A stretch of 64,000 nucleotides of DNA from contig NZ_AGAV01000007.1 of NCBI RefSeq assembly GCF_000224785.1, positions 62,001-126,000 of the forward strand, written 5' to 3'. This document shows, piece by piece, positions 5,258 to 60,356 of this stretch. This DNA is from Lentibacillus jeotgali (lineage in GTDB: Bacteria; Bacillota; Bacilli; Bacillales; Amphibacillaceae). The notes under the pieces are model-generated. The model ran no database searches. It was given only the letters and a program-made list of their open reading frames with translations, and was not told where the DNA came from. The stretch's first letter is position 1, and the number at the start of each line of letters is the position of its first letter. The position numbers and the translations under genes are program-made.

Positions 5258-5994
5258 ATGTATCAGTACATCTTAAACAGTACGGCACATCGTAACAGCC
5301 AGCTGCCGTGTGGTCCATGGGTCATGATGCAGCAATGGGAACAATTATTGTTTATGCACCAGCGCTTTCCGCGGCGGGTGCTTGAACATTATCTTCCTCC
5401 GGGACTTAAACTGGATACATATGACGGGGATGCTTGGATAAGTGTTATTACGTTTAGAGTAAGTCATGTACGCATTCGTGGATTTCCACCTATTCCGTTT
5501 TTGAACCGTTTTTTAGAAGTGAACGTCCGGACCTATGTGAAACGAAACGGTATGAAGGGGGTCTATTTTTTCAGTCTTGATGCAGATAAGCTGCCAGTCG
5601 TGATGGGAGCAAGGATGGCAACACTTCCATACAGCTATGCAGCTATGTCAATGAACATGCGGGATGGCATTATTTCTTTTCGCAGTGAACGTAAAGGTAA
5701 GAAGCTAGGGTCCCTAAGGGCTGCATATCAGCCGGCAGGTGAACGTTTTTATCCGGAAGGGAGGGCCTTGAAGACTGGCTGGTGGAGCGCTATTTTCTTT
5801 GGACTTATAGGAATGGCAACCTGTATAGATGTGGCATTCATCATAAAAAGTGGGAACTAAGACCAGCTGAAGCGGAGGTGGAGCAGCAGCTGCTGACCCC
5901 ATTTTTGCCCGCCGGGACGATAGGTTCAAATGCCCTCGCGCATTATGCAACATCCCAGACTGCTTTGATTTGGATGATCCGGAAAGAGGGATAA
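5258..5994 (+). pseudogene. DUF2071 (YqjF-like) protein gene, frameshifted
   Basis: The first reading frame (from ATG 5258 after GAAGGAGGG) gives a DUF2071 start: GPWVMMQQWEQLLFMH, then PPGLKLDTYDGDAWIS. Near 5770 the homology passes to another frame: after FYPEG the expected continuation L-E-D-W-L-V-E-R-Y-F-L-W is read one base earlier and runs to RPAEAEVEQQLLTPF and a stop at 5994. The shift falls in a G-rich run (GGAAGGGAGGGCC), consistent with loss of one base. Read without the shift, the protein ends at 5860 (200 residues) with an unrelated tail. This could be a true pseudogene, a phase-variable tract or a sequencing error. Function of intact relatives is unknown. Confidence 0.82.
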
Positions 5995-6120
5995 GGGTTT
6001 TTTAGTAAATCTTCCCTTATCGATTGCAAGTGTATAATATTAATTATTTGAGTGGTCATTTGAATCTCATGGGTGAATAAGGTGGAAAACCGGTGATTCC
6101 TACCGCACAGATTGCTGATT

Positions 6121-6327
6121 TCATGCTACCCTCGCGCGAAATTCAGGGAGTGTCGCGTGATCTCATGCTACCCTCGCGCGAAATTCAGGGAGTGTCGCGC
6201 GATCTCATGCTACTCTCGCGCGAAATTCAGGGAGTGTCGCGCGATCTCATGCTACTCTCGCGCGAAATTCAGGGAGTGTCGCGCGATCTCATGCTACCCT
6301 CGCGCGAAATTCAGAACACCCGCACGA
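6121..6327. repeat. 21-bp phased array A (42-bp higher-order unit)
   Basis: A 42-bp unit is repeated almost perfectly about 4.6 times. Each unit holds two half-units sharing TCGCGCGA. The G-C-G-C-G-like core begins at 6134, 6155, 6176, 6197, 6218, 6239, 6260, 6281, 6302 and, degenerate, 6323: every step is exactly 21 bp. The array fills the gap between the convergent DUF2071 and sdhB genes and ends 14 bp from the sdhB stop codon. All frames are open by chance of the period, giving spurious 14-residue repeat ORFs. Confidence 0.9.
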
Positions 6328-6340
6328 CCCTATCCCGATC

Positions 6341-7111
6341 TTAATAGTTGTCGCTTCCAAAAAAGCTTTTAAAGGATTCGAGGGTGGCTTCCCGATTGAC
6401 TGCCGCAATTGATGTGGTGATCGGGATACCTTTAGGACAAACCTGCACACAGTTTTGTGAATTGCTGCAGCCTTGCAGACCTCCTTCTTCCATAAAGCCA
6501 TCAATACGCTCTTCACTATTCATTTCTCCGGTCGGGTGGGCATTTTTAAGCCGTACCTGAGGGAAGACGAACGGCCCCATGAATTCACTCTTATCATTAA
6601 CATTCGGACATGCTTCCAGGCAGACACCGCATGTGAAACATTTCGAAAGTTCATAGGCCATGAGACGCTTCTTTTCATTCATCCGTGGACCGGGCCCAAT
6701 GTCATATGTACCGTCAATCGGTATCCAGGCTTTTACCTGTTTCAGAGAATCAAACATGCTCTCGCGGTCAATGATCAGATCCCTTACCACTGGAAATGTG
6801 CGCATTGGCTCTATTCGAATGGGCTGTTCCAGGTCATCAATCAGCGTTGAACAAGCCTGACGGGGAACGTCGTTAATTAGCATGGAACATATGCCGCACA
6901 CTTCTTCAAGGCAACTCATTTCCCACTGAATCGGAATGGTTTCTTCACCATCTTTGTTAACAGGGTTTTCCCGAATATACATGAGTGCAGAAATAATATT
7001 CATGTTAGGACTGTACGGGATTGAGAATTCTTCCTTATATGGTTCGGAGCTAGGATCTTTTTGTCGTTCTATGATTAAATGAATTGTTTTTTCTTCCGTT
7101 GTTGCAGCCAA
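6341..7111 (-). CDS. sdhB: Succinate dehydrogenase/fumarate reductase iron-sulfur subunit, stand-alone copy
   Basis: SdhB carries electrons from the flavoprotein SdhA to quinone through three Fe-S clusters. All ligands are visible: 2Fe-2S Cys67, 72, 75 and 87; 4Fe-4S motif C158FTCGVCLEAC; 3Fe-4S/4Fe-4S motif C215-x5-C-x3-CP. The 256-residue protein matches Bacillus SdhB along its whole length. The start is TTG 7111, eight bases after AAAGGAG; upstream in-frame codons are not SdhB-like. Unusually, sdhC and sdhA are not next to it: a racemase gene runs divergently on one side and a repeat array follows on the other. It is either a relocated single copy or an extra paralogue. Confidence 0.92.
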   Translation of the reverse strand: MAATTEEKTIHLIIERQKDPSSEPYKEEFSIPYSPNMNIISALMYIRENPVNKDGEETIPIQWEMSCLEEVCGICSMLINDVPRQACSTLIDDLEQPIRIEPMRTFPVVRDLIIDRESMFDSLKQVKAWIPIDGTYDIGPGPRMNEKKRLMAYELSKCFTCGVCLEACPNVNDKSEFMGPFVFPQVRLKNAHPTGEMNSEERIDGFMEEGGLQGCSNSQNCVQVCPKGIPITTSIAAVNREATLESFKSFFGSDNY

Positions 7112-7203
7112 TTTGATTTCTCCTTTCTGGATCGATTTAAACTTCGGATACCAGCAGTGAATGACGAGTTGATAGTAATAGTATTGGAACACAGTGTTAA
7201 ATT

Positions 7204-7232
7204 TATACAACGGGAATAATGTGTGATATAAT
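7204..7232 (+). promoter_or_regulatory. Extended -10 promoter of the racemase gene
   Basis: TATACA (7204-7209) and TGATATAAT (7224-7232) form a promoter with a 17-bp spacer and an extended TG -10 element, about 45 bp upstream of the racemase start codon. Confidence 0.6.
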
Positions 7233-7282
7233 AATAATAGATAAGTTTTCCGATTAAAATACTCAGCTAAAGGGTGGATACG

Positions 7283-7981
7283 ATGAAACGTGCAGGAATA
7301 GTCGGCGGGCTTGGACCTGAATCAACAGTTGATTACTATCAATCATTCATTCAAAAGTATCAGGACCGGATGAACAGCAAACAGACATTGCCGGAATTGT
7401 ATATTAACAGCATCAATATGTATCATATTTTTAAATTTATCAGCGAAGACCGGCTTAATGACCTTAGCGATTATGTGGGCGAAGCAGCGAAAAAGCTGGA
7501 AGAAACCGGAGCTGCCTTTGCTGTCGTATCGGCGAACACCCCGCATATCGTGTTTGAACAGATCCGGGAACACGTAACGATTCCAATGATCAGCATCGTG
7601 GAAGCAACGTATGATAAAGCAGACGAGCTGGGTCTGCAAAACGTTGGTCTGCTGGGGACAAAATTTACGATGGAACATGACTTTTTCAAGAAGCCATTTC
7701 AGTCAGGCGGCAAAAAAATTGTGGCGCCTTCTGAAGAAGACCAGCAATTCATTCATCAGCGGATCGTGGATGAATTGGAAAATGGTATTGTAAAAGAGGA
7801 GACGAAGCAGGCGTTTCTGCAAATCATCAACAAAATGATGAAGCAAGAACAACTGGACGGCCTGATTCTTGGCTGTACGGAACTGCCGATGATCCTGAAA
7901 GACGGGGATGTCGATATTCCGCTTTTGAACACGACAGAAATTCATGTTGATAAAATGGTGGAGCTAACGTTTTCGGATTAG
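7283..7981 (+). CDS. Aspartate/glutamate racemase family protein (L-Asp/Glu type)
   Basis: The 232-residue protein belongs to the PLP-independent Asp/Glu racemase superfamily. The N-terminus is GIVGGLGPEST. The first catalytic site reads S-A-N-T-P-H, so Thr86 occupies the usual Cys position, while the second is kept as L-G-C198-T-E-L-P. A Thr/Cys pair has been described for the E. coli L-aspartate/glutamate-specific racemase YgeA, so one-sided specificity for L-substrates is a reasonable inference. The start is ATG 7283, five bases after AAAGGGTGG; a GTG at 7274 lies inside that site. It is monocistronic, followed by repeat array B. Confidence 0.88.
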   Translation: MKRAGIVGGLGPESTVDYYQSFIQKYQDRMNSKQTLPELYINSINMYHIFKFISEDRLNDLSDYVGEAAKKLEETGAAFAVVSANTPHIVFEQIREHVTIPMISIVEATYDKADELGLQNVGLLGTKFTMEHDFFKKPFQSGGKKIVAPSEEDQQFIHQRIVDELENGIVKEETKQAFLQIINKMMKQEQLDGLILGCTELPMILKDGDVDIPLLNTTEIHVDKMVELTFSD

Positions 7982-8045
7982 TATTTGAGAAGATTGATTT
8001 TGGCAGTAGCCAAACATTTTCCGTTAGGGAAGTAGGATGAATCCA

Positions 8046-8145
8046 AACTCGTGCGAGCCCGTCTACAACTTGTGCGGGAAACATCCAAACTCGTGCGGGA
8101 TCCGCCTCAACCCGTGCAGAAACCACACAAATTCATGCGACGGCG
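8046..8145. repeat. 21-bp phased array B (GTGCG type)
   Basis: Five units carry cores GTGCG, GTGCG, GTGCG, GTGCA and ATGCG at 8051, 8072, 8093, 8114 and 8135, each exactly 21 bp apart, with consensus AAC-T-GTGCGGGA. It lies between the convergent racemase and ABC permease genes, just before an interspersed repeat. Confidence 0.85.
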
Positions 8146-8184
8146 CCCCAGCTCCAACGAGGCAACTCCAAGCAAGGCAATACA

Positions 8185-8450
8185 AAAACAGAGGCTGAGA
8201 CAAAAGTATTTAAGGTAAAGAAAAATGGGCTCCTAAACTAGCGGAGGAAAAATACGGAGACTCCTGGGGGAGCATAGGCCTAGATGAGACCCCGCAGTGC
8301 GAAGCACGAGGAGGCTCATCAGCCGCCCCCGGAAAGCGTAGTATTTTTCCGAAGCGGTCGTTATAAGATATACCAACATTGTATTAGAATTTTCCGACTT
8401 TCATTGGTCTTTAGTATTGCGTATTTCAGTTATGTCCCAGCCTCTGTTTT
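8185..8450. repeat. Bacillaceae interspersed GC-rich repeat with terminal inverted repeats
   Basis: The element begins AAACAGAGGCTGAGACA and ends with TGTCCCAGCCTCTGTTTT, an inverted copy. The core contains CGGAGACTCCTGGGGGAG, GAGACCCCGCAGTGCGAAG and CGAGGAGGCTCATC, which recur as a structured repeat in many Bacillaceae genomes. The right end touches the stop codon of the minus-strand ABC permease (8450), so the terminal stem can serve as its terminator. No transposase is encoded. A short version of the same ends occurs at 23428-23475. Confidence 0.75.
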
Positions 8451-10093
8451 CAACCTTGCTTCAACTGTGCATCATTATTTCGAAATATAATCAGCCAGCT
8501 AACGACCGTCACAATCAGTAAGGCGCCGATGTAAAAATAAATGCCATAGCTGAACGATAGCACGATATAATGAACGAGAGCGAACAATCCTGCCATAAGA
8601 CTAAGTAAGATGTTAAAAGCTGTATTCGTGTCCTGTGCTAGTTCAAATGACTGGCTAAAGGGATAGGTGCGATTATTAAGCAGCTTATACGAGATAATTG
8701 TGTGCAGCCACCCACCCAGCAGGACCGCGACCAGATCTGGTGCAATCCGTGGAGAAAAAATAAATAGAAACACCACACTCAGCACCGCGAAAACCGGCAG
8801 ATAAAGTTTAACGAAAAAGGCTTTAATAGCACCGCGATGCAGTGATAAGGAGTCTGCGAGCGATACCGTGCGCAATATCCAGCTACCATTGTAGTTTTCC
8901 GAGTATTTGAGCATGTGAATGGCGGCTGGAATCATAATACTGCCTATATAGATGGTTAAATACATTTTGCTGTCACCGATATTCCCGGTCAACTCATTAT
9001 TGAACGAGTTAAACAAAAAGACAAACGGAAAAAATAGTGCAAAGCCTAATGACGGATACACCTTTAATTTGAAATCCCGTTCTTTTTTCATCATGGCAGA
9101 GGCAAATTGGAAAAATACGCGTTCTTCCCGGTTGAAACAGACAAGGCGTGACCAAAGATGATCCAATTTGAATAATTTTTGCCTGCTTGTTCCGGATTCG
9201 TTCAAAAGCTTCTCCAAATTCCGCTCAAATGAAGGCATTAGCCGTGCGTATATGATAATCGAAATGATGGGAACAAATAATGCCAGCAAAGACAGAAAGA
9301 TAATGCCACTGGACATATTTTGCCTCAACAGAAGCTCAAACGGCGCCCCAAACCAAATCGGCGGTATAAAAACATGCCACCAGCTGAACGTATACGATAC
9401 GGTTAAATCAATCACTTCAAAGGAACGTGCAAGCAGCTGGTAACCCACAACAATACCAACTGATAACAAAATTTGGACGTAATTGATGATGTCTTTTAAT
9501 AGCTCCCCGCTGAAGATTTGCAACGTGAATATGTATATAAGAGCTGTCAGTGCAATGATAAAGATCAGGTTCAGGAGAATAACGCCTATAAACAACAATG
9601 AAAAAAGAATCCCTTTTGTAAAAATCATCACGATAAATGGGGCTGCTAAAAAAGCGCCTGCCAACAAGGCGATGTACATACCGACATGCACCATTTTGGC
9701 TGCACTGATGGCTTTTTTGCTGACGGGTTTTGTGCCAATGATATTTTTGTCCCGGACATCCAGCAGAACAGAAGTGAAGTCGGAAATCATCGATGTCATC
9801 AGAAAAAACATGGTGATGCCAAACAGGAGACTCATCTGCAGCATGTAATGGTCGCCGAAAAATAAAAACGGAACACTGATGAGTCCATAAAGCGCATACA
9901 GCCATAATGATTTCAGAAATTGATTGCCTTGTTTCTTTTTCGATGAATCCATGTTGAAAATGGTAGGCACCCGACGTTGATCCATCGTCAATTTCAGCTG
10001 TAGGATCTTGCGCATATCGTCATAATCTATTCCGAGCCGCCTGAACAAAAATTGAAAACGATCGAGAAATCTTAATGAACTGAAATCATTCAT
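8450..10093 (-). CDS. ABC transporter permease, large membrane subunit
   Basis: A 547-residue membrane protein with about 10-12 hydrophobic segments grouped in two halves (roughly residues 60-285 and 340-545), separated by a charged loop rich in Arg/Lys/Glu. There are no nucleotide-binding motifs. It is encoded directly after, and overlapping by 8 bp, an ABC ATPase gene, so the two form an exporter-type system. Large permeases of this form are usually annotated only as putative ABC exporters, and the substrate cannot be read from sequence. Its 3' end abuts an interspersed repeat. Confidence 0.85.
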   Translation of the reverse strand: MNDFSSLRFLDRFQFLFRRLGIDYDDMRKILQLKLTMDQRRVPTIFNMDSSKKKQGNQFLKSLWLYALYGLISVPFLFFGDHYMLQMSLLFGITMFFLMTSMISDFTSVLLDVRDKNIIGTKPVSKKAISAAKMVHVGMYIALLAGAFLAAPFIVMIFTKGILFSLLFIGVILLNLIFIIALTALIYIFTLQIFSGELLKDIINYVQILLSVGIVVGYQLLARSFEVIDLTVSYTFSWWHVFIPPIWFGAPFELLLRQNMSSGIIFLSLLALFVPIISIIIYARLMPSFERNLEKLLNESGTSRQKLFKLDHLWSRLVCFNREERVFFQFASAMMKKERDFKLKVYPSLGFALFFPFVFLFNSFNNELTGNIGDSKMYLTIYIGSIMIPAAIHMLKYSENYNGSWILRTVSLADSLSLHRGAIKAFFVKLYLPVFAVLSVVFLFIFSPRIAPDLVAVLLGGWLHTIISYKLLNNRTYPFSQSFELAQDTNTAFNILLSLMAGLFALVHYIVLSFSYGIYFYIGALLIVTVVSWLIIFRNNDAQLKQG

Positions 10094-14958: not shown

Positions 14959-15160
14959 TCGGCAGAAACGGTTCAGATATCAGCAGAAGAGGGGGAGGTA
15001 TCGACAGAAAAGGATGGAAATCATCAGAAGAGGGGAGATATCGACAGAAGAGAGTGGAAATCAGCAGAGGAGGGGGAGGTATCGACAGAAGAGGATGGAA
15101 ATCAGCAGAGGAGGGGAGATATCGACAGAAGAGAGTGGAAATCAGCAGAAGAGCAAGAAA
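14959..15160. repeat. 20/21-bp tandem array C (ATCGACAGAAGAG type)
   Basis: About ten units alternate ATCGACAGAAGAG and ATCAGCAGAAGAG, starting at 14959, 14980, 15001, 15021, 15041, 15061, 15082, 15102, 15122 and 15142, so spacing is 20 or 21 bp. The purine-rich unit differs from the other arrays, but the period and the position between two convergent genes (ectD and prfC) are the same. The open frames through it are low-complexity and not credible genes. Confidence 0.82.
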
Positions 15161-17404: not shown

Positions 17405-17624
17405 CGCCTGCTGATAGAAAAGCTTCCTTATCACAGGTGGTAAGTGATGACACTATGCGATTAGAGCGAAAAAGTATAAGAAACTTCAATCAGTGGGAGC
17501 GTTTTGGCCCCGCTGATTGTTAGTTGAACAGAATCGGGCATTAATTGGCAGTTGGCCTTTTTGGTTTACCGCATCGTCTTTGAGTAGGAATACTACTGCC
17601 AGTTATGCGGGATAGATTTATTTA

Positions 17625-17704: not shown

Positions 17705-17931
17705 GGCTCGTGCGAGAACCAGGTTGACTTGTGCAAGAGGTACTCGAACCTATGCGGGAACAGTACCAACCTGTGCGAGGTGCTGTTGAACTTGTGTCGG
17801 AACAGCGTGAATTTGTGCGAAAGGCGCCCGAACTTGTGCGGCAGCATCCCCAACTTGTGTGAGAGACGCTTGAACTTGTGCAGGAACAGCCCCAACTCGT
17901 GCGAGAGACACTTGAAACTCGTGCAGGAACA
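17705..17931. repeat. 21-bp phased array D (AACTTGTGCGGGA type)
   Basis: Eleven units with a GTGCG-like core lie at 17710, 17731, 17752, 17773, 17794, 17815, 17836, 17857, 17878, 17899 and 17921. The first ten are spaced by exactly 21 bp although the spacer bases vary strongly, so phase is conserved better than sequence. The consensus is roughly AACTTGTGCGGGAACAG. It lies in the 734-bp gap between the rhodanese and copB genes. The rest of that gap holds two hairpins (about 17491-17520 and 17625-17656) and the copB promoter. Confidence 0.9.
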
Positions 17932-32401: not shown

Positions 32402-33457
32402 ATGCAAAAATATCGCATTGATCCAAGTAAAGGGCTTGAATTTGGTCTTTATACATTAGGTGATCATTTGCCGGATCCTGAAACGGGTGAACGGATCCCG
32501 GCAAAGCAGCGTATAAATGAAATGATTGAACTGGCAAAGCTAGCTGAACAGGCGGGCCTTGACTTTTTCAGTGTTGGGGAAAGTCATCAGGACTATTTCG
32601 CGACACAGGCACATTCGGTTGTGCTGTCAGCGATTGCACAGGCGACAGAAACTATAAAAATTTCCAGTTCTTCAACGATCATCAGCACGCTTGACCCCGT
32701 ACGTGTGTTTGAAGATTTTGCCACCATTGACCTTATATCAGGTGGCCGTGCTGAAATTGTTGCCGGACGTGCTTCCAGGGTAGGGGTTTATGATTTATTA
32801 GGTTATGATCTTCGTGATTATGAAGAACTTTACGAAGAAAAATTTGATCTGCTGAATAGAATTAATGAAGAAGAAGTTGTCAATTGGAGTGGGCAATTCC
32901 GGCCATCGCTCAGGAATGCCAGAGTATTGCCGCGTCCACTGAATGGCTCGCTGCCGATTTGGCGTGCTGTCGGCGGAACACCAGCCAGTGCGATTAAAGC
33001 AGGATTTGCCGGAGTCCCGATGTATATGGCGCACTTAGGCGGCCCGGTGTCTGCGTTCAAGCGGACGGTTGATGCTTACCGTGACGCATTAAAGCAAAGC
33101 GGGTATGATCCGGCTGAACTGCCTGTTTCAACAGCAGGATTTTTCTATGCCGCTGAAACCACCCAGGACGCCTTGAGAGAGTATTACCCGCATATTAATG
33201 AAGGTATGAAGAAGACAAACGGTCAAGGCTTTCCGAAACAGGGCTTTGCTCAGGCGCAGGATACACGCAGCGTCATCAATGTCGGCAGCCCGCAGCAAAT
33301 CATTGAAAAAATCCTTTATCAGCATGAGCAATACGGGCATCAGCGCTACATCGCCCAAATGGATTTCGGCGGTGTGCCGTTTGACAAGCTGAAGAAAAAT
33401 ATAGATTTAATCGGTACGGAAATTTTACCAGCTGTCAAAAAGTATACGGCAAAGTAG
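32402..33457 (+). CDS. LLM-class flavin-dependent oxidoreductase
   Basis: A 351-residue bacterial-luciferase-like TIM-barrel protein. Typical motifs are LEFGLYTLGD, AEQAGLDFFSVGESHQ, ISSSSTIISTLDPVRVFEDFATIDLISGGRAE (in short pieces) and GTPASA. These enzymes use FMNH2 or F420 to oxidise varied small molecules, and the substrate cannot be deduced. It is followed after 13 bp by repeat array E. Confidence 0.9.
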   Translation: MQKYRIDPSKGLEFGLYTLGDHLPDPETGERIPAKQRINEMIELAKLAEQAGLDFFSVGESHQDYFATQAHSVVLSAIAQATETIKISSSSTIISTLDPVRVFEDFATIDLISGGRAEIVAGRASRVGVYDLLGYDLRDYEELYEEKFDLLNRINEEEVVNWSGQFRPSLRNARVLPRPLNGSLPIWRAVGGTPASAIKAGFAGVPMYMAHLGGPVSAFKRTVDAYRDALKQSGYDPAELPVSTAGFFYAAETTQDALREYYPHINEGMKKTNGQGFPKQGFAQAQDTRSVINVGSPQQIIEKILYQHEQYGHQRYIAQMDFGGVPFDKLKKNIDLIGTEILPAVKKYTAK

Positions 33458-33469
33458 GGGATCTCGAAC

Positions 33470-33650
33470 TAGAGCGAGAGCAGCATCAACTTGAGCGAGA
33501 TTCGCTTGAACATGTGCGTCAGCAGCGCCAACATGAGCGAGATTCGCTTGAACATGAGCGAGAACCGCCCGAACTTGAGCGTTAGCAGCAGCAACATGAG
33601 CGAGAACCGCTCGAACATAAGCAGTAGCGGCATCAACTCGTGCGAGAAGA
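33470..33650. repeat. 21-bp phased array E (AACATGAGCGAGAAC type)
   Basis: Nine units with a GAGCG-like core start at 33472, 33493, 33514, 33535, 33556, 33577, 33598, 33619 and 33640, all exactly 21 bp apart. The consensus AACATGAGCGAGAACCGC resembles, but is not the same as, arrays B and D. It lies between two co-directional genes and begins 13 bp after the upstream stop codon. Confidence 0.9.
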
Positions 33651-60229: not shown

Positions 60230-60330
60230 GGGTCGCGCGAAAATCATTTGTCGTTGCGCGAAATCGAGGCCCTGTTGCGCGAATTTAGGTCCGTGCCGCG
60301 CGAAACCGGAGTACCGTCGCGCGATTTCTG
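60230..60330. repeat. 21-bp phased array F (TTGCGCGAAAT type)
   Basis: Five units have cores GCGCG at 60235, 60256, 60277, 60298 and 60319, exactly 21 bp apart; the rest of each unit is variable. It resembles array A in its core. It lies inside the czrA-czcD unit and ends about 25 bp before the czcD start codon, so it is probably transcribed. Confidence 0.88.
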
Positions 60331-60356
60331 GACCAGTTCGATGGGGAGGTATTCAC

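What the first reader, a model, noticed from the sequence alone, without database searches (positions are those of the whole stretch)
17705..17931. A family of intergenic arrays with an exact 21-bp phase
In array D ten consecutive GTGCG-like cores start at 17710 + 21n without a single exception, although the bases between them vary. Four other arrays (A 6121, B 8046, E 33470, F 60230) show the same exact 21-bp step with related cores G-[T/A/C]-GCG-[A/G][A/G]A in the same orientation; a sixth (C 14959) has a 20/21-bp step and another core. Each locus has its own consensus, so copies evolve together within a locus. 21 bp is two turns of B-DNA, placing every core on the same face of the helix, which fits cooperative binding of a protein or nucleoid factor. 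All sit 3' of genes. None encodes a credible protein, and there are no CRISPR-like spacers.
Basis: seen in the sequence. Interest (0 to 1): 0.78.

Follow-up and report, generated by a model that had tools for sequence, protein, structure and literature searches.

The report
Intergenic repeats phased every 21 bp
Between its genes this Bacillus-like bacterium carries many short DNA repeat arrays whose sequence drifts freely while the 21-base step, two turns of the double helix, hardly ever changes, which looks like rows of docking sites for an unknown DNA-binding protein.

Summary
All six window arrays beat 2000 of 2000 dinucleotide shuffles; 37 arrays were called in the genome pieces read. Directly adjacent core distances are 21 x308, 20 x6, 22 x4, never 18 or 24, so these are not decayed coding repeats. 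Spacers are near random (identity 0.34, chance 0.28). Family I arrays show no RNA folding signal on average. A core-free scan of intergenic DNA is dominated by lags 20-21 in three genera of the family, with none in E. coli or a class-level control. The related cores are variants of one dyad, TCG-NN-CGA, with a free centre: TCGNNCGA-N13-TCGNNCGA occurs 101 times in this genome against 2 for the reversed control, and 342 against 1 in a relative. Unrelated cores keep the same step. Arrays prefer gene 3' ends: 43 of 47, and all six in the window. Best reading: phased binding-site lattices for a homodimeric DNA-binding protein; the protein and its role are unknown. Nine paper searches found no description.

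The parts
6120..6315 (+). Array A: TCGCGCGA palindromic cores every 21 bp, 42-bp superunit, between convergent ORFs 5258-5860 (+) and 6341-7210 (-)
   Evidence: lag 21 match 0.53, lag 42 0.97; 0 of 2000 shuffles
8043..8147 (+). Array B: five GTGCG/GTGCA/ATGCG-type cores every 21 bp, between convergent ORFs 7274-7981 (+) and 8450-10093 (-)
   Evidence: lag 21 match 0.54; 0 of 2000
14960..15160 (+). Array C: core ATCRGCAGAAGAGG, 20/21-bp step (40-41-bp superunit), between convergent ORFs; related units with 20- or 21-bp step in G031, G073, G042
17705..17931 (+). Array D (the finding): ten GTGCG-like cores at 17710+21n, an eleventh at +22; core AACTYGTGCGRGA
   Evidence: lag 21 match 0.52; 0 of 2000
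33470..33650 (+). Array E: GAGCG/GTGCG cores every 21 bp, starting about 13 bases after the luciferase-like monooxygenase ORF 32402-33457
   Evidence: lag 21 match 0.60; 0 of 2000
60230..60338 (+). Array F: five TCGCGCGA/TTGCGCGA/CCGCGCGA cores every 21 bp between an ArsR-type regulator ORF and a cation-efflux ORF
   Evidence: lag 21 match 0.52; 0 of 2000

Best explanation
These are chromosomal lattices of DNA-binding sites. In this genus the site is an 8-bp dyad, TCG-NN-CGA (often with the left half relaxed to TTG), the form expected for a homodimeric protein that reads the two half-sites and not the two central bases. Sites repeat every 21 bp (20 in some relatives), so successive dimers sit on one face of the helix two turns apart and can touch each other. 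SHOWN by computation: the array register, one-base slips between adjacent cores, constant spacer length with near-random spacer sequence, the in-phase dyad with free centre, no average RNA-folding signal in family I, intergenic periodicity dominated by 20/21, spread through the family, preference for gene 3' ends. INFERRED: that a protein binds, that it is a dimer, and that it assembles cooperatively into a filament or wrap that marks, insulates or condenses intergenic DNA. The arrays grow and shrink by unit duplication at intergenic positions some of which outlive species. Relatives with unrelated cores would carry other proteins, or a changed specificity, on the same two-turn lattice. Within this reading I think an insulator, roadblock or nucleoid role behind gene ends more likely than promoter control, because the arrays are under-represented in divergent spacers and their neighbours share no function.
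For: Phase: directly adjacent strong family-I cores 21 x308, 20 x6, 22 x4, none at 18 or 24; 53 of 55 GTGCG-triple rows in the whole genome have a two-step sum of 41-43 though 26-66 was allowed; 39 of 39 rows in G127 sum to 42 (20-22 allowed per step); with the core GCGTG 110 of 116 rows in seven relatives sum to 39-42 though 26-66 was allowed (lengths read by eye, rows of one array overlap). Core-free lag scan: 51 of 55 intergenic calls at lag 20/21 in 971 kb (many pieces were chosen for their arrays); in 20 spread 20-kb pieces of G127, 9 at 21 and 1 at 40 against 3 at other lags; E. coli 200 kb none at 20/21, class-level control G503 200 kb none. Constraint: spacer identity 0.34 vs 0.28 chance, core 0.73 (core columns were used for detection); column heterogeneity beyond uniform decay at p<0.01 in 14 of 22 arrays. 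Dyad: among the 64 possible dyads XYZ-NN-Z'Y'X', TCGNNCGA leads in phase: own pieces 35 vs next 2, G105 54 vs 2, G124 8 vs 2, G127 11 vs 8, with centres CG/TG/AG/AT/CA and a few CT; TCGNNCGA-N13-TCGNNCGA 101 vs control 2 in the window's genome, 342 vs 1 in G105, 168 vs 0 in G073, 176 vs 0 in G069 of another genus; 39 of 120 family genomes have one, 1497 matches in all. One array passes from TCGCGCGA to TCGTGCGA cores in register (C15:5543-5888; 20 bp at the junction, in an array stepping 20 and 21). Not RNA on average: mean fold z of 26 family I arrays -0.6 forward, +0.8 reverse. Placement.
Against: No binding protein was identified and no binding data exist. Several arrays with the same step have non-dyad cores, so one protein cannot explain all. 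Eight of 22 arrays do not pass the heterogeneity test at p<0.01, D among them (p=0.026). Of six array loci with orthologous intervals in G124, three have no array there, so no single array is strictly maintained. The 10.5-bp A/T-G/C harmonic expected of a wrapping signal is weak (7 of 51 arrays p<0.05; Fisher p=0.003 over 23 representatives). Three single arrays do fold better than shuffles: C15:51540 z -5.7, C17:343139 z -3.4, C29:246992 z -6.1 (the last is left out of the family I mean), and palindromic family II gives mean z -2.2 and -1.6. In 81 of 120 family genomes the dyad pair is absent, so it is dispensable. G008, with six lag-21 arrays, has only one dyad pair. Among longer core distances one is 87 (= 4 x 21 + 3) beside 41, 43, 64 and 85.
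Confidence: 0.55

Rival explanations
1. Neutral minisatellites: a replication-slippage or template-switch process in these genomes duplicates units of about two helical turns whatever the sequence, and nothing reads them. They are tolerated behind genes and not in promoters.
For: Core sequences differ widely between loci and genomes while the step is shared; arrays come and go between sister species; 42-bp superunits show recent duplication; some relatives have perfect tandem copies (G112, G021, G025); local clustering, 20 of 37 called arrays on the 86-kb contig C15; deficit in divergent spacers also fits mere tolerance.
Against: Old arrays keep cores and lose spacers, and indels are nearly absent although spacers are close to saturated; the same dyad with a changing centre recurs across genera.
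Confidence: 0.22
2. Selfish or mobile repeat that copies itself into intergenic DNA, perhaps through replication intermediates on one strand.
For: 27 of 28 family I arrays in the pieces read have the core strand on the positive-GC-skew strand, as do 9 of 9 in G127 by the nearest sampled pieces; 36 of 55 GTGCG-triple rows lie on one 86-kb contig.
Against: No match to the one array tried in 72,556 plasmid or 50,697 phage records (BLAST's low-complexity filter was on), no consistent termini noticed, no transposase among 30 flanking proteins. Strand is mixed in Evansella, Planomicrobium and P. halotolerans and all reverse in P. salinus (skew not measured there). Genes are also mostly on the leading strand.
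Confidence: 0.1
3. RNA element in 3' untranslated regions, for example a repeated binding site for a regulatory protein or a decoy for small RNA.
For: 43 of 47 arrays face at least one gene 3' end; array E starts just after a stop codon; three single arrays have fold z below -3.
Against: Four of 47 arrays lie between divergent genes, and the family I array C15:1961 between two opposite-strand genes keeps its orientation; a terminator-like hairpin precedes the array at 29 of 67 facing gene ends (111 of 408 for array-free ends with a fixed 120-base search, so not strictly comparable); no mean fold signal in family I; no Rfam match in the window.
Confidence: 0.09
4. Decayed coding repeats of a seven-residue peptide.
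For: 21 is seven codons and open frames run through several arrays; one longer core distance, 87, is off by three.
Against: All ten departures from 21 between directly adjacent cores are of one base, none of three; other genomes use a 20-bp step.
Confidence: 0.02

Closest known systems
Iteron arrays of plasmid replication origins (recalled, not looked up)
   Same: Direct repeats of about two helical turns, each replicon with its own core, bound in phase by an initiator
   Different: Here dozens of chromosomal intergenic arrays of up to about 30 units, no replication gene among 30 flanking proteins, no plasmid match for the one array tried
REP/BIME and other palindromic intergenic repeats of enterobacteria (recalled)
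   Same: Intergenic, numerous, palindromic core
   Different: Defined here by exact spacing, not by a stem-loop; no mean fold signal in family I
TAACTGA direct repeats of Beggiatoaceae (MacGregor 2015, PMC4679880; abstract and section list read)
   Same: Abundant intergenic direct repeats of unknown role, some arrays long
   Different: One fixed heptamer, in the main genome mostly just upstream of start codons according to the abstract; here the step is fixed, the core varies and arrays prefer gene 3' ends
CRISPR arrays (recalled)
   Same: Conserved segment alternating with variable segment of constant length
   Different: Whole unit is only 20-21 bp and spacers are 7-13 bp
Bacterial minisatellites / VNTR loci used for typing (recalled; titles seen in the listing)
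   Same: Tandem units that change in number
   Different: Ordinary minisatellites have many unit lengths and uniform divergence (recalled); here one step and conserved cores

Membership tests
Iteron arrays | Direct repeats phased at about two turns with a replicon-specific core | tested here: met
   phase; lineage-specific cores:
Iteron arrays | Next to a replication initiator gene / on a plasmid origin | tested here: not met
   no initiator among 30 flanking proteins (Pfam; 29 of 30 have a match); no plasmid match for one array
CRISPR arrays | Repeats of about 21-48 bp separated by longer unique spacers (recalled) | tested here: not met
   unit 20-21 bp in total
CRISPR arrays | cas genes nearby | not tested
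   not searched for
REP/BIME | Palindromic stem-loop unit | tested here: inconclusive
   family I mean fold z -0.6/+0.8, three arrays below -3; family II has palindromic cores with a 2-bp centre and mean z -2.2/-1.6
REP/BIME | Associated REP transposase | not tested
   not searched for
Decayed coding repeat | Length changes in multiples of three | tested here: not met
   adjacent distances 20 x6, 22 x4, 18 and 24 x0; one longer distance of 87
Described RNA family | Match to an Rfam model at gathering score | tested here: not met
   0 matches in the window
Phased operator array for a homodimeric protein | Dyad half-sites with unread centre, recurring on one helical face | tested here: met
Phased operator array for a homodimeric protein | A protein that binds it | not testable with these tools
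   no binding data

The most novel reading that the evidence does not exclude
Bacillaceae carry a class of chromosomal satellite-like DNA whose conserved property is the geometry (two helical turns) and not the sequence: many unrelated cores, each internally conserved, on the same 20-21-bp lattice, with dyad cores whose centre changes from species to species, as if lattice-building DNA-binding proteins and their sites co-evolve quickly, as centromere satellites and their proteins do in eukaryotes.
Probability: 0.3. Interest if true: 0.9.

Novelty: new variant of a known kind. Interest (0 to 1): 0.76.

Why it matters
If a protein builds two-turn lattices on dozens of intergenic arrays, it would be an unrecognised chromosome-organising or insulating system in a large group of Bacillus relatives. 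Fixed geometry with changing sequence gives a clean natural test of helical phasing in a bacterial chromosome. Open frames through such arrays may also be a source of spurious protein annotations (inference).

Tried and rejected
Coding repeats: rejected by one-base slips and 20-bp steps elsewhere. RNA structure: no mean signal in family I, though three arrays fall below z -3; no Rfam family; no tRNA. Intrinsic curvature / 10.5-bp alternation: weak and not universal. Terminator-linked placement: 29 of 67 gene ends facing arrays against 111 of 408 control ends, with different search lengths, so not used as evidence. Strand-specific C-to-T mutation as the cause of orientation: the C-to-T side prevails (178 of 225 cores on that side differ from TCGCGCGA, against 14 of 61 on the other), but the third C is kept in 213 of 225, so mutation alone does not explain it (the arrays were found with a profile that favours that C). 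Functional theme of neighbours: none seen in 30 flanking proteins (three are DNA-binding regulators of the LysR, LacI and ArsR types). Plasmid or phage spread: none found with one array as query; four viral contigs held a two-core match, and the lag scan found one weak lag-21 call (z 5.4) elsewhere in one of them. Phylum-wide search: 34 of 398 genomes matched, the window's own included, most others with one to three matches and some high-G+C or simple repeats; the exception is G482 with perfect 21-bp copies (only 6 same-order and 9 same-class genomes were in that sample). One search used too loose a pattern, and I used little of it. One search counted gene context with too strict a gene cut-off (it placed A and D between divergent genes); one search replaces it.

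Papers: nine searches of the held open-access library found no description in their listings; I opened only PMC4679880 (abstract and section list).

Biases and rows dropped: own-genome pieces outside the window were chosen because they hold arrays, and the G105 contig and part of the G124, G008 and G031 pieces likewise. The samples not chosen for arrays are the spread pieces of G127 (one of 20, at 2.61 Mb, was chosen as the C15 counterpart), E. coli, G503 and G522. In one search seven further arrays fell inside called genes and five lacked a flank and were left out. Array calls touching runs of N were dropped in the lag scans. Lag-21 calls also occur inside genes, in E. coli (1) and G503 (2) too, so at least one of the ten G124 calls may be an uncalled gene. 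My gene caller is a simple codon-usage one; it calls spurious ORFs over some arrays, D among them, which is therefore missing from that tally. In one search a set of 87 core pairs at residue 12 modulo 21 comes from a G105 array interrupted by a run of N.

Full report
WHAT WAS CHECKED. The best lag is 21 for A, B, D, E and F and 40 (2 x 20) for C; none of 2000 dinucleotide shuffles of any of the six arrays reached the observed match. In D ten cores stand in perfect register, but only five of ten are exactly GTGCG, and an eleventh follows at +22.

GENOME-WIDE. GTGCG three times with any spacing of 13-33 gives 53 forward and 2 reverse rows against 4 and 0 for the reversed pattern. 53 of the 55 rows have a two-step sum of 41-43 and 48 sum to exactly 42; rows from one array overlap, and contigs C13 and C14 share a duplicated stretch. 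In the pieces read, 37 arrays were called, 20 of them on the 86-kb contig C15; the longest run to about 30 units. Between directly adjacent strong cores the distances are 21 x308, 20 x6, 22 x4; 18 and 24 do not occur. Longer distances, across weak cores, are 41 x3, 42 x30, 43 x2, 63 x4, 64, 84 x2, 85 and one 87. Length change is therefore rare and nearly always by single bases, while spacer columns are near chance identity (0.34 against 0.28; cores 0.73; the cores were used to find the units, so only the spacer figure is free of selection). In 14 of 22 arrays columns differ in conservation more than uniform decay from a founder would give (p<0.01); D gives p=0.026.

STEP WITHOUT CORE. A scan for self-match at lags 10-32, ignoring sequence, called 55 intergenic arrays in 971 kb: 48 at lag 21, 3 at lag 20 and 4 elsewhere. 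Many of these pieces had been chosen for their arrays. With lags 10-40 the spread sample of complete relative G127 gives 21 x9, 40 x1 and three others; G124 21 x10, 20 x1 and six others; G105 21 x2, 40 x1 and two others. In two other genera G008 gives 21 x6 and one other, and G031 20 x4, 40 x1 and four others. Same-class G503 gives no 20/21 (one at 10), E. coli K-12 (200 kb) none (one each at 18 and 19), same-order G522 one at 20 with two others. In these genomes unrelated cores share the step: CTTYGGCGTTTT, GCCCATAATT (20 bp), CGGCTGAAGTT, CGCTGTAGAT, CGCCAAAGTTGA in G127; GTTGATAA, ATCAACCAAGACCGG and others in G008, GCTGAATAAT (20) in G031, TCGCCAATAAA (20) in G522. With the core GCGTG and free spacing, 110 of 116 rows in seven relatives sum to 39-42.

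A COMMON DYAD. Of all 64 dyads XYZ-NN-Z'Y'X' recurring at 20-22 bp, TCGNNCGA leads by far in the pieces of this genome (35; next 2) and in G105 (54; next 2), and leads in G124 (8; next 2) and G127 (11; next 8), with centres CG, TG, AG, AT and CA and a few CT; G008 and E. coli show none. The fixed pattern TCGNNCGA-N13-TCGNNCGA occurs 101 times in this genome (reversed control 2), 342 in G105 (1), 168 in G073 (0) and 121 in G089 (0); these last two have no GTGCG-triple match, so their centres are presumably other than TG. It occurs 176 times in G069 of another genus (0). In total 39 of 120 family genomes and 20 of 46 genera have at least one, 1497 matches in all; 81 have none. The bare GTGCG triple is in 33 of 120 and 21 of 46. 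At C15:5543-5888 the array passes from TCGCGCGA to TCGTGCGA cores with a 20-bp step at the junction, in an array stepping 20 and 21. A dyad with an unread centre is what a homodimeric protein binds; this last step is inference from general knowledge.

EVOLUTION. Sister genome G124 has an array at the same intergenic position in 3 of 6 loci where this genome has one, with fewer and different units, and in 0 of 7 where it has none (Fisher p=0.07). At D it keeps one core, at E none. Some positions persist while the units turn over quickly.

PLACEMENT AND STRAND. Of 47 lag-called intergenic arrays in this genome, G105 and G127, 17 are convergent, 26 tandem and 4 divergent, against 18%, 62% and 19% of intergenic length: convergent excess p=0.003-0.005, divergent deficit p=0.02-0.04, taking arrays as independent. 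All six window arrays have a gene 3' end beside them. Family I orientation follows the positive-GC-skew strand in 27 of 28 arrays (skew of the piece, weak for C29) and in 9 of 9 arrays of G127, on both sides of the skew switch, judged by the nearest sampled pieces; in G124 one array runs the other way. Most genes share that strand, so the cause is open. In named relatives arrays occur with steps mostly of 19-22 bp, on both strands in Evansella clarkii, Planomicrobium sp. and Planococcus halotolerans and on one strand in P. salinus.

NOT RNA ON AVERAGE, NOT PROTEIN. Mean fold z is -0.6 and +0.8 for the two strands of 26 family I arrays; three single arrays fall below -3 (C15:51540, C17:343139, and C29:246992, which is outside that mean), and the palindromic family II gives -2.2 and -1.6 over 9. 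No Rfam family matches the window. One-base slips and 20-bp steps exclude a seven-residue coding repeat.

VERDICT. Best reading: phased lattices of binding sites, homodimeric in this genus, on one face of the helix (confidence 0.55). The main rival is a slippage process with a preferred two-turn unit (0.22). It does not explain conserved cores with near-random spacers of fixed length, but it would explain the core diversity. I found no printed description in nine searches of the held library; most subscription papers are not held, so this is weak evidence of novelty.

Noticed in passing
window 8190-8345: A G+C-rich element (GAGACCCCGC...GAGGAGGCTCA type) follows array B; sequence that looks similar lies at the G124 counterpart of C15:10293 and in L217.
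   Followed up: partly
window about 17449-17480, upstream of D: Only the tail of an ORF that seems intact in sister G124 (L211; it reads like a methyltransferase, by eye) seems to remain here.
   Followed up: no
L221 (G125) upstream of the D-neighbour gene; L283 (G127): Longer tandem arrays with a unit of about 52 bp sit in comparable positions.
   Followed up: no
G031, G039, G021, G025 versus G008 and the window's genus: The step is 20 bp in some genera and 21 in others, largely per genome and whatever the core; G042 has both.
   Followed up: partly
G000 contigs C13 and C14: The two contigs share matches at constant offset 216,676, probably redundant assembly; hits there count twice.
   Followed up: partly
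G482:C6:172439-172653 and C14:127565-127727: A distant relative in the phylum has perfect 21-bp tandem copies with GTGCG cores.
   Followed up: no
G000:C15 (86 kb): 20 of 37 called arrays lie on this one contig; its counterpart in G127 (about 2.6 Mb) lies in the 2.17-2.88 Mb stretch that holds 8 of 9 GTGCG arrays there.
   Followed up: partly
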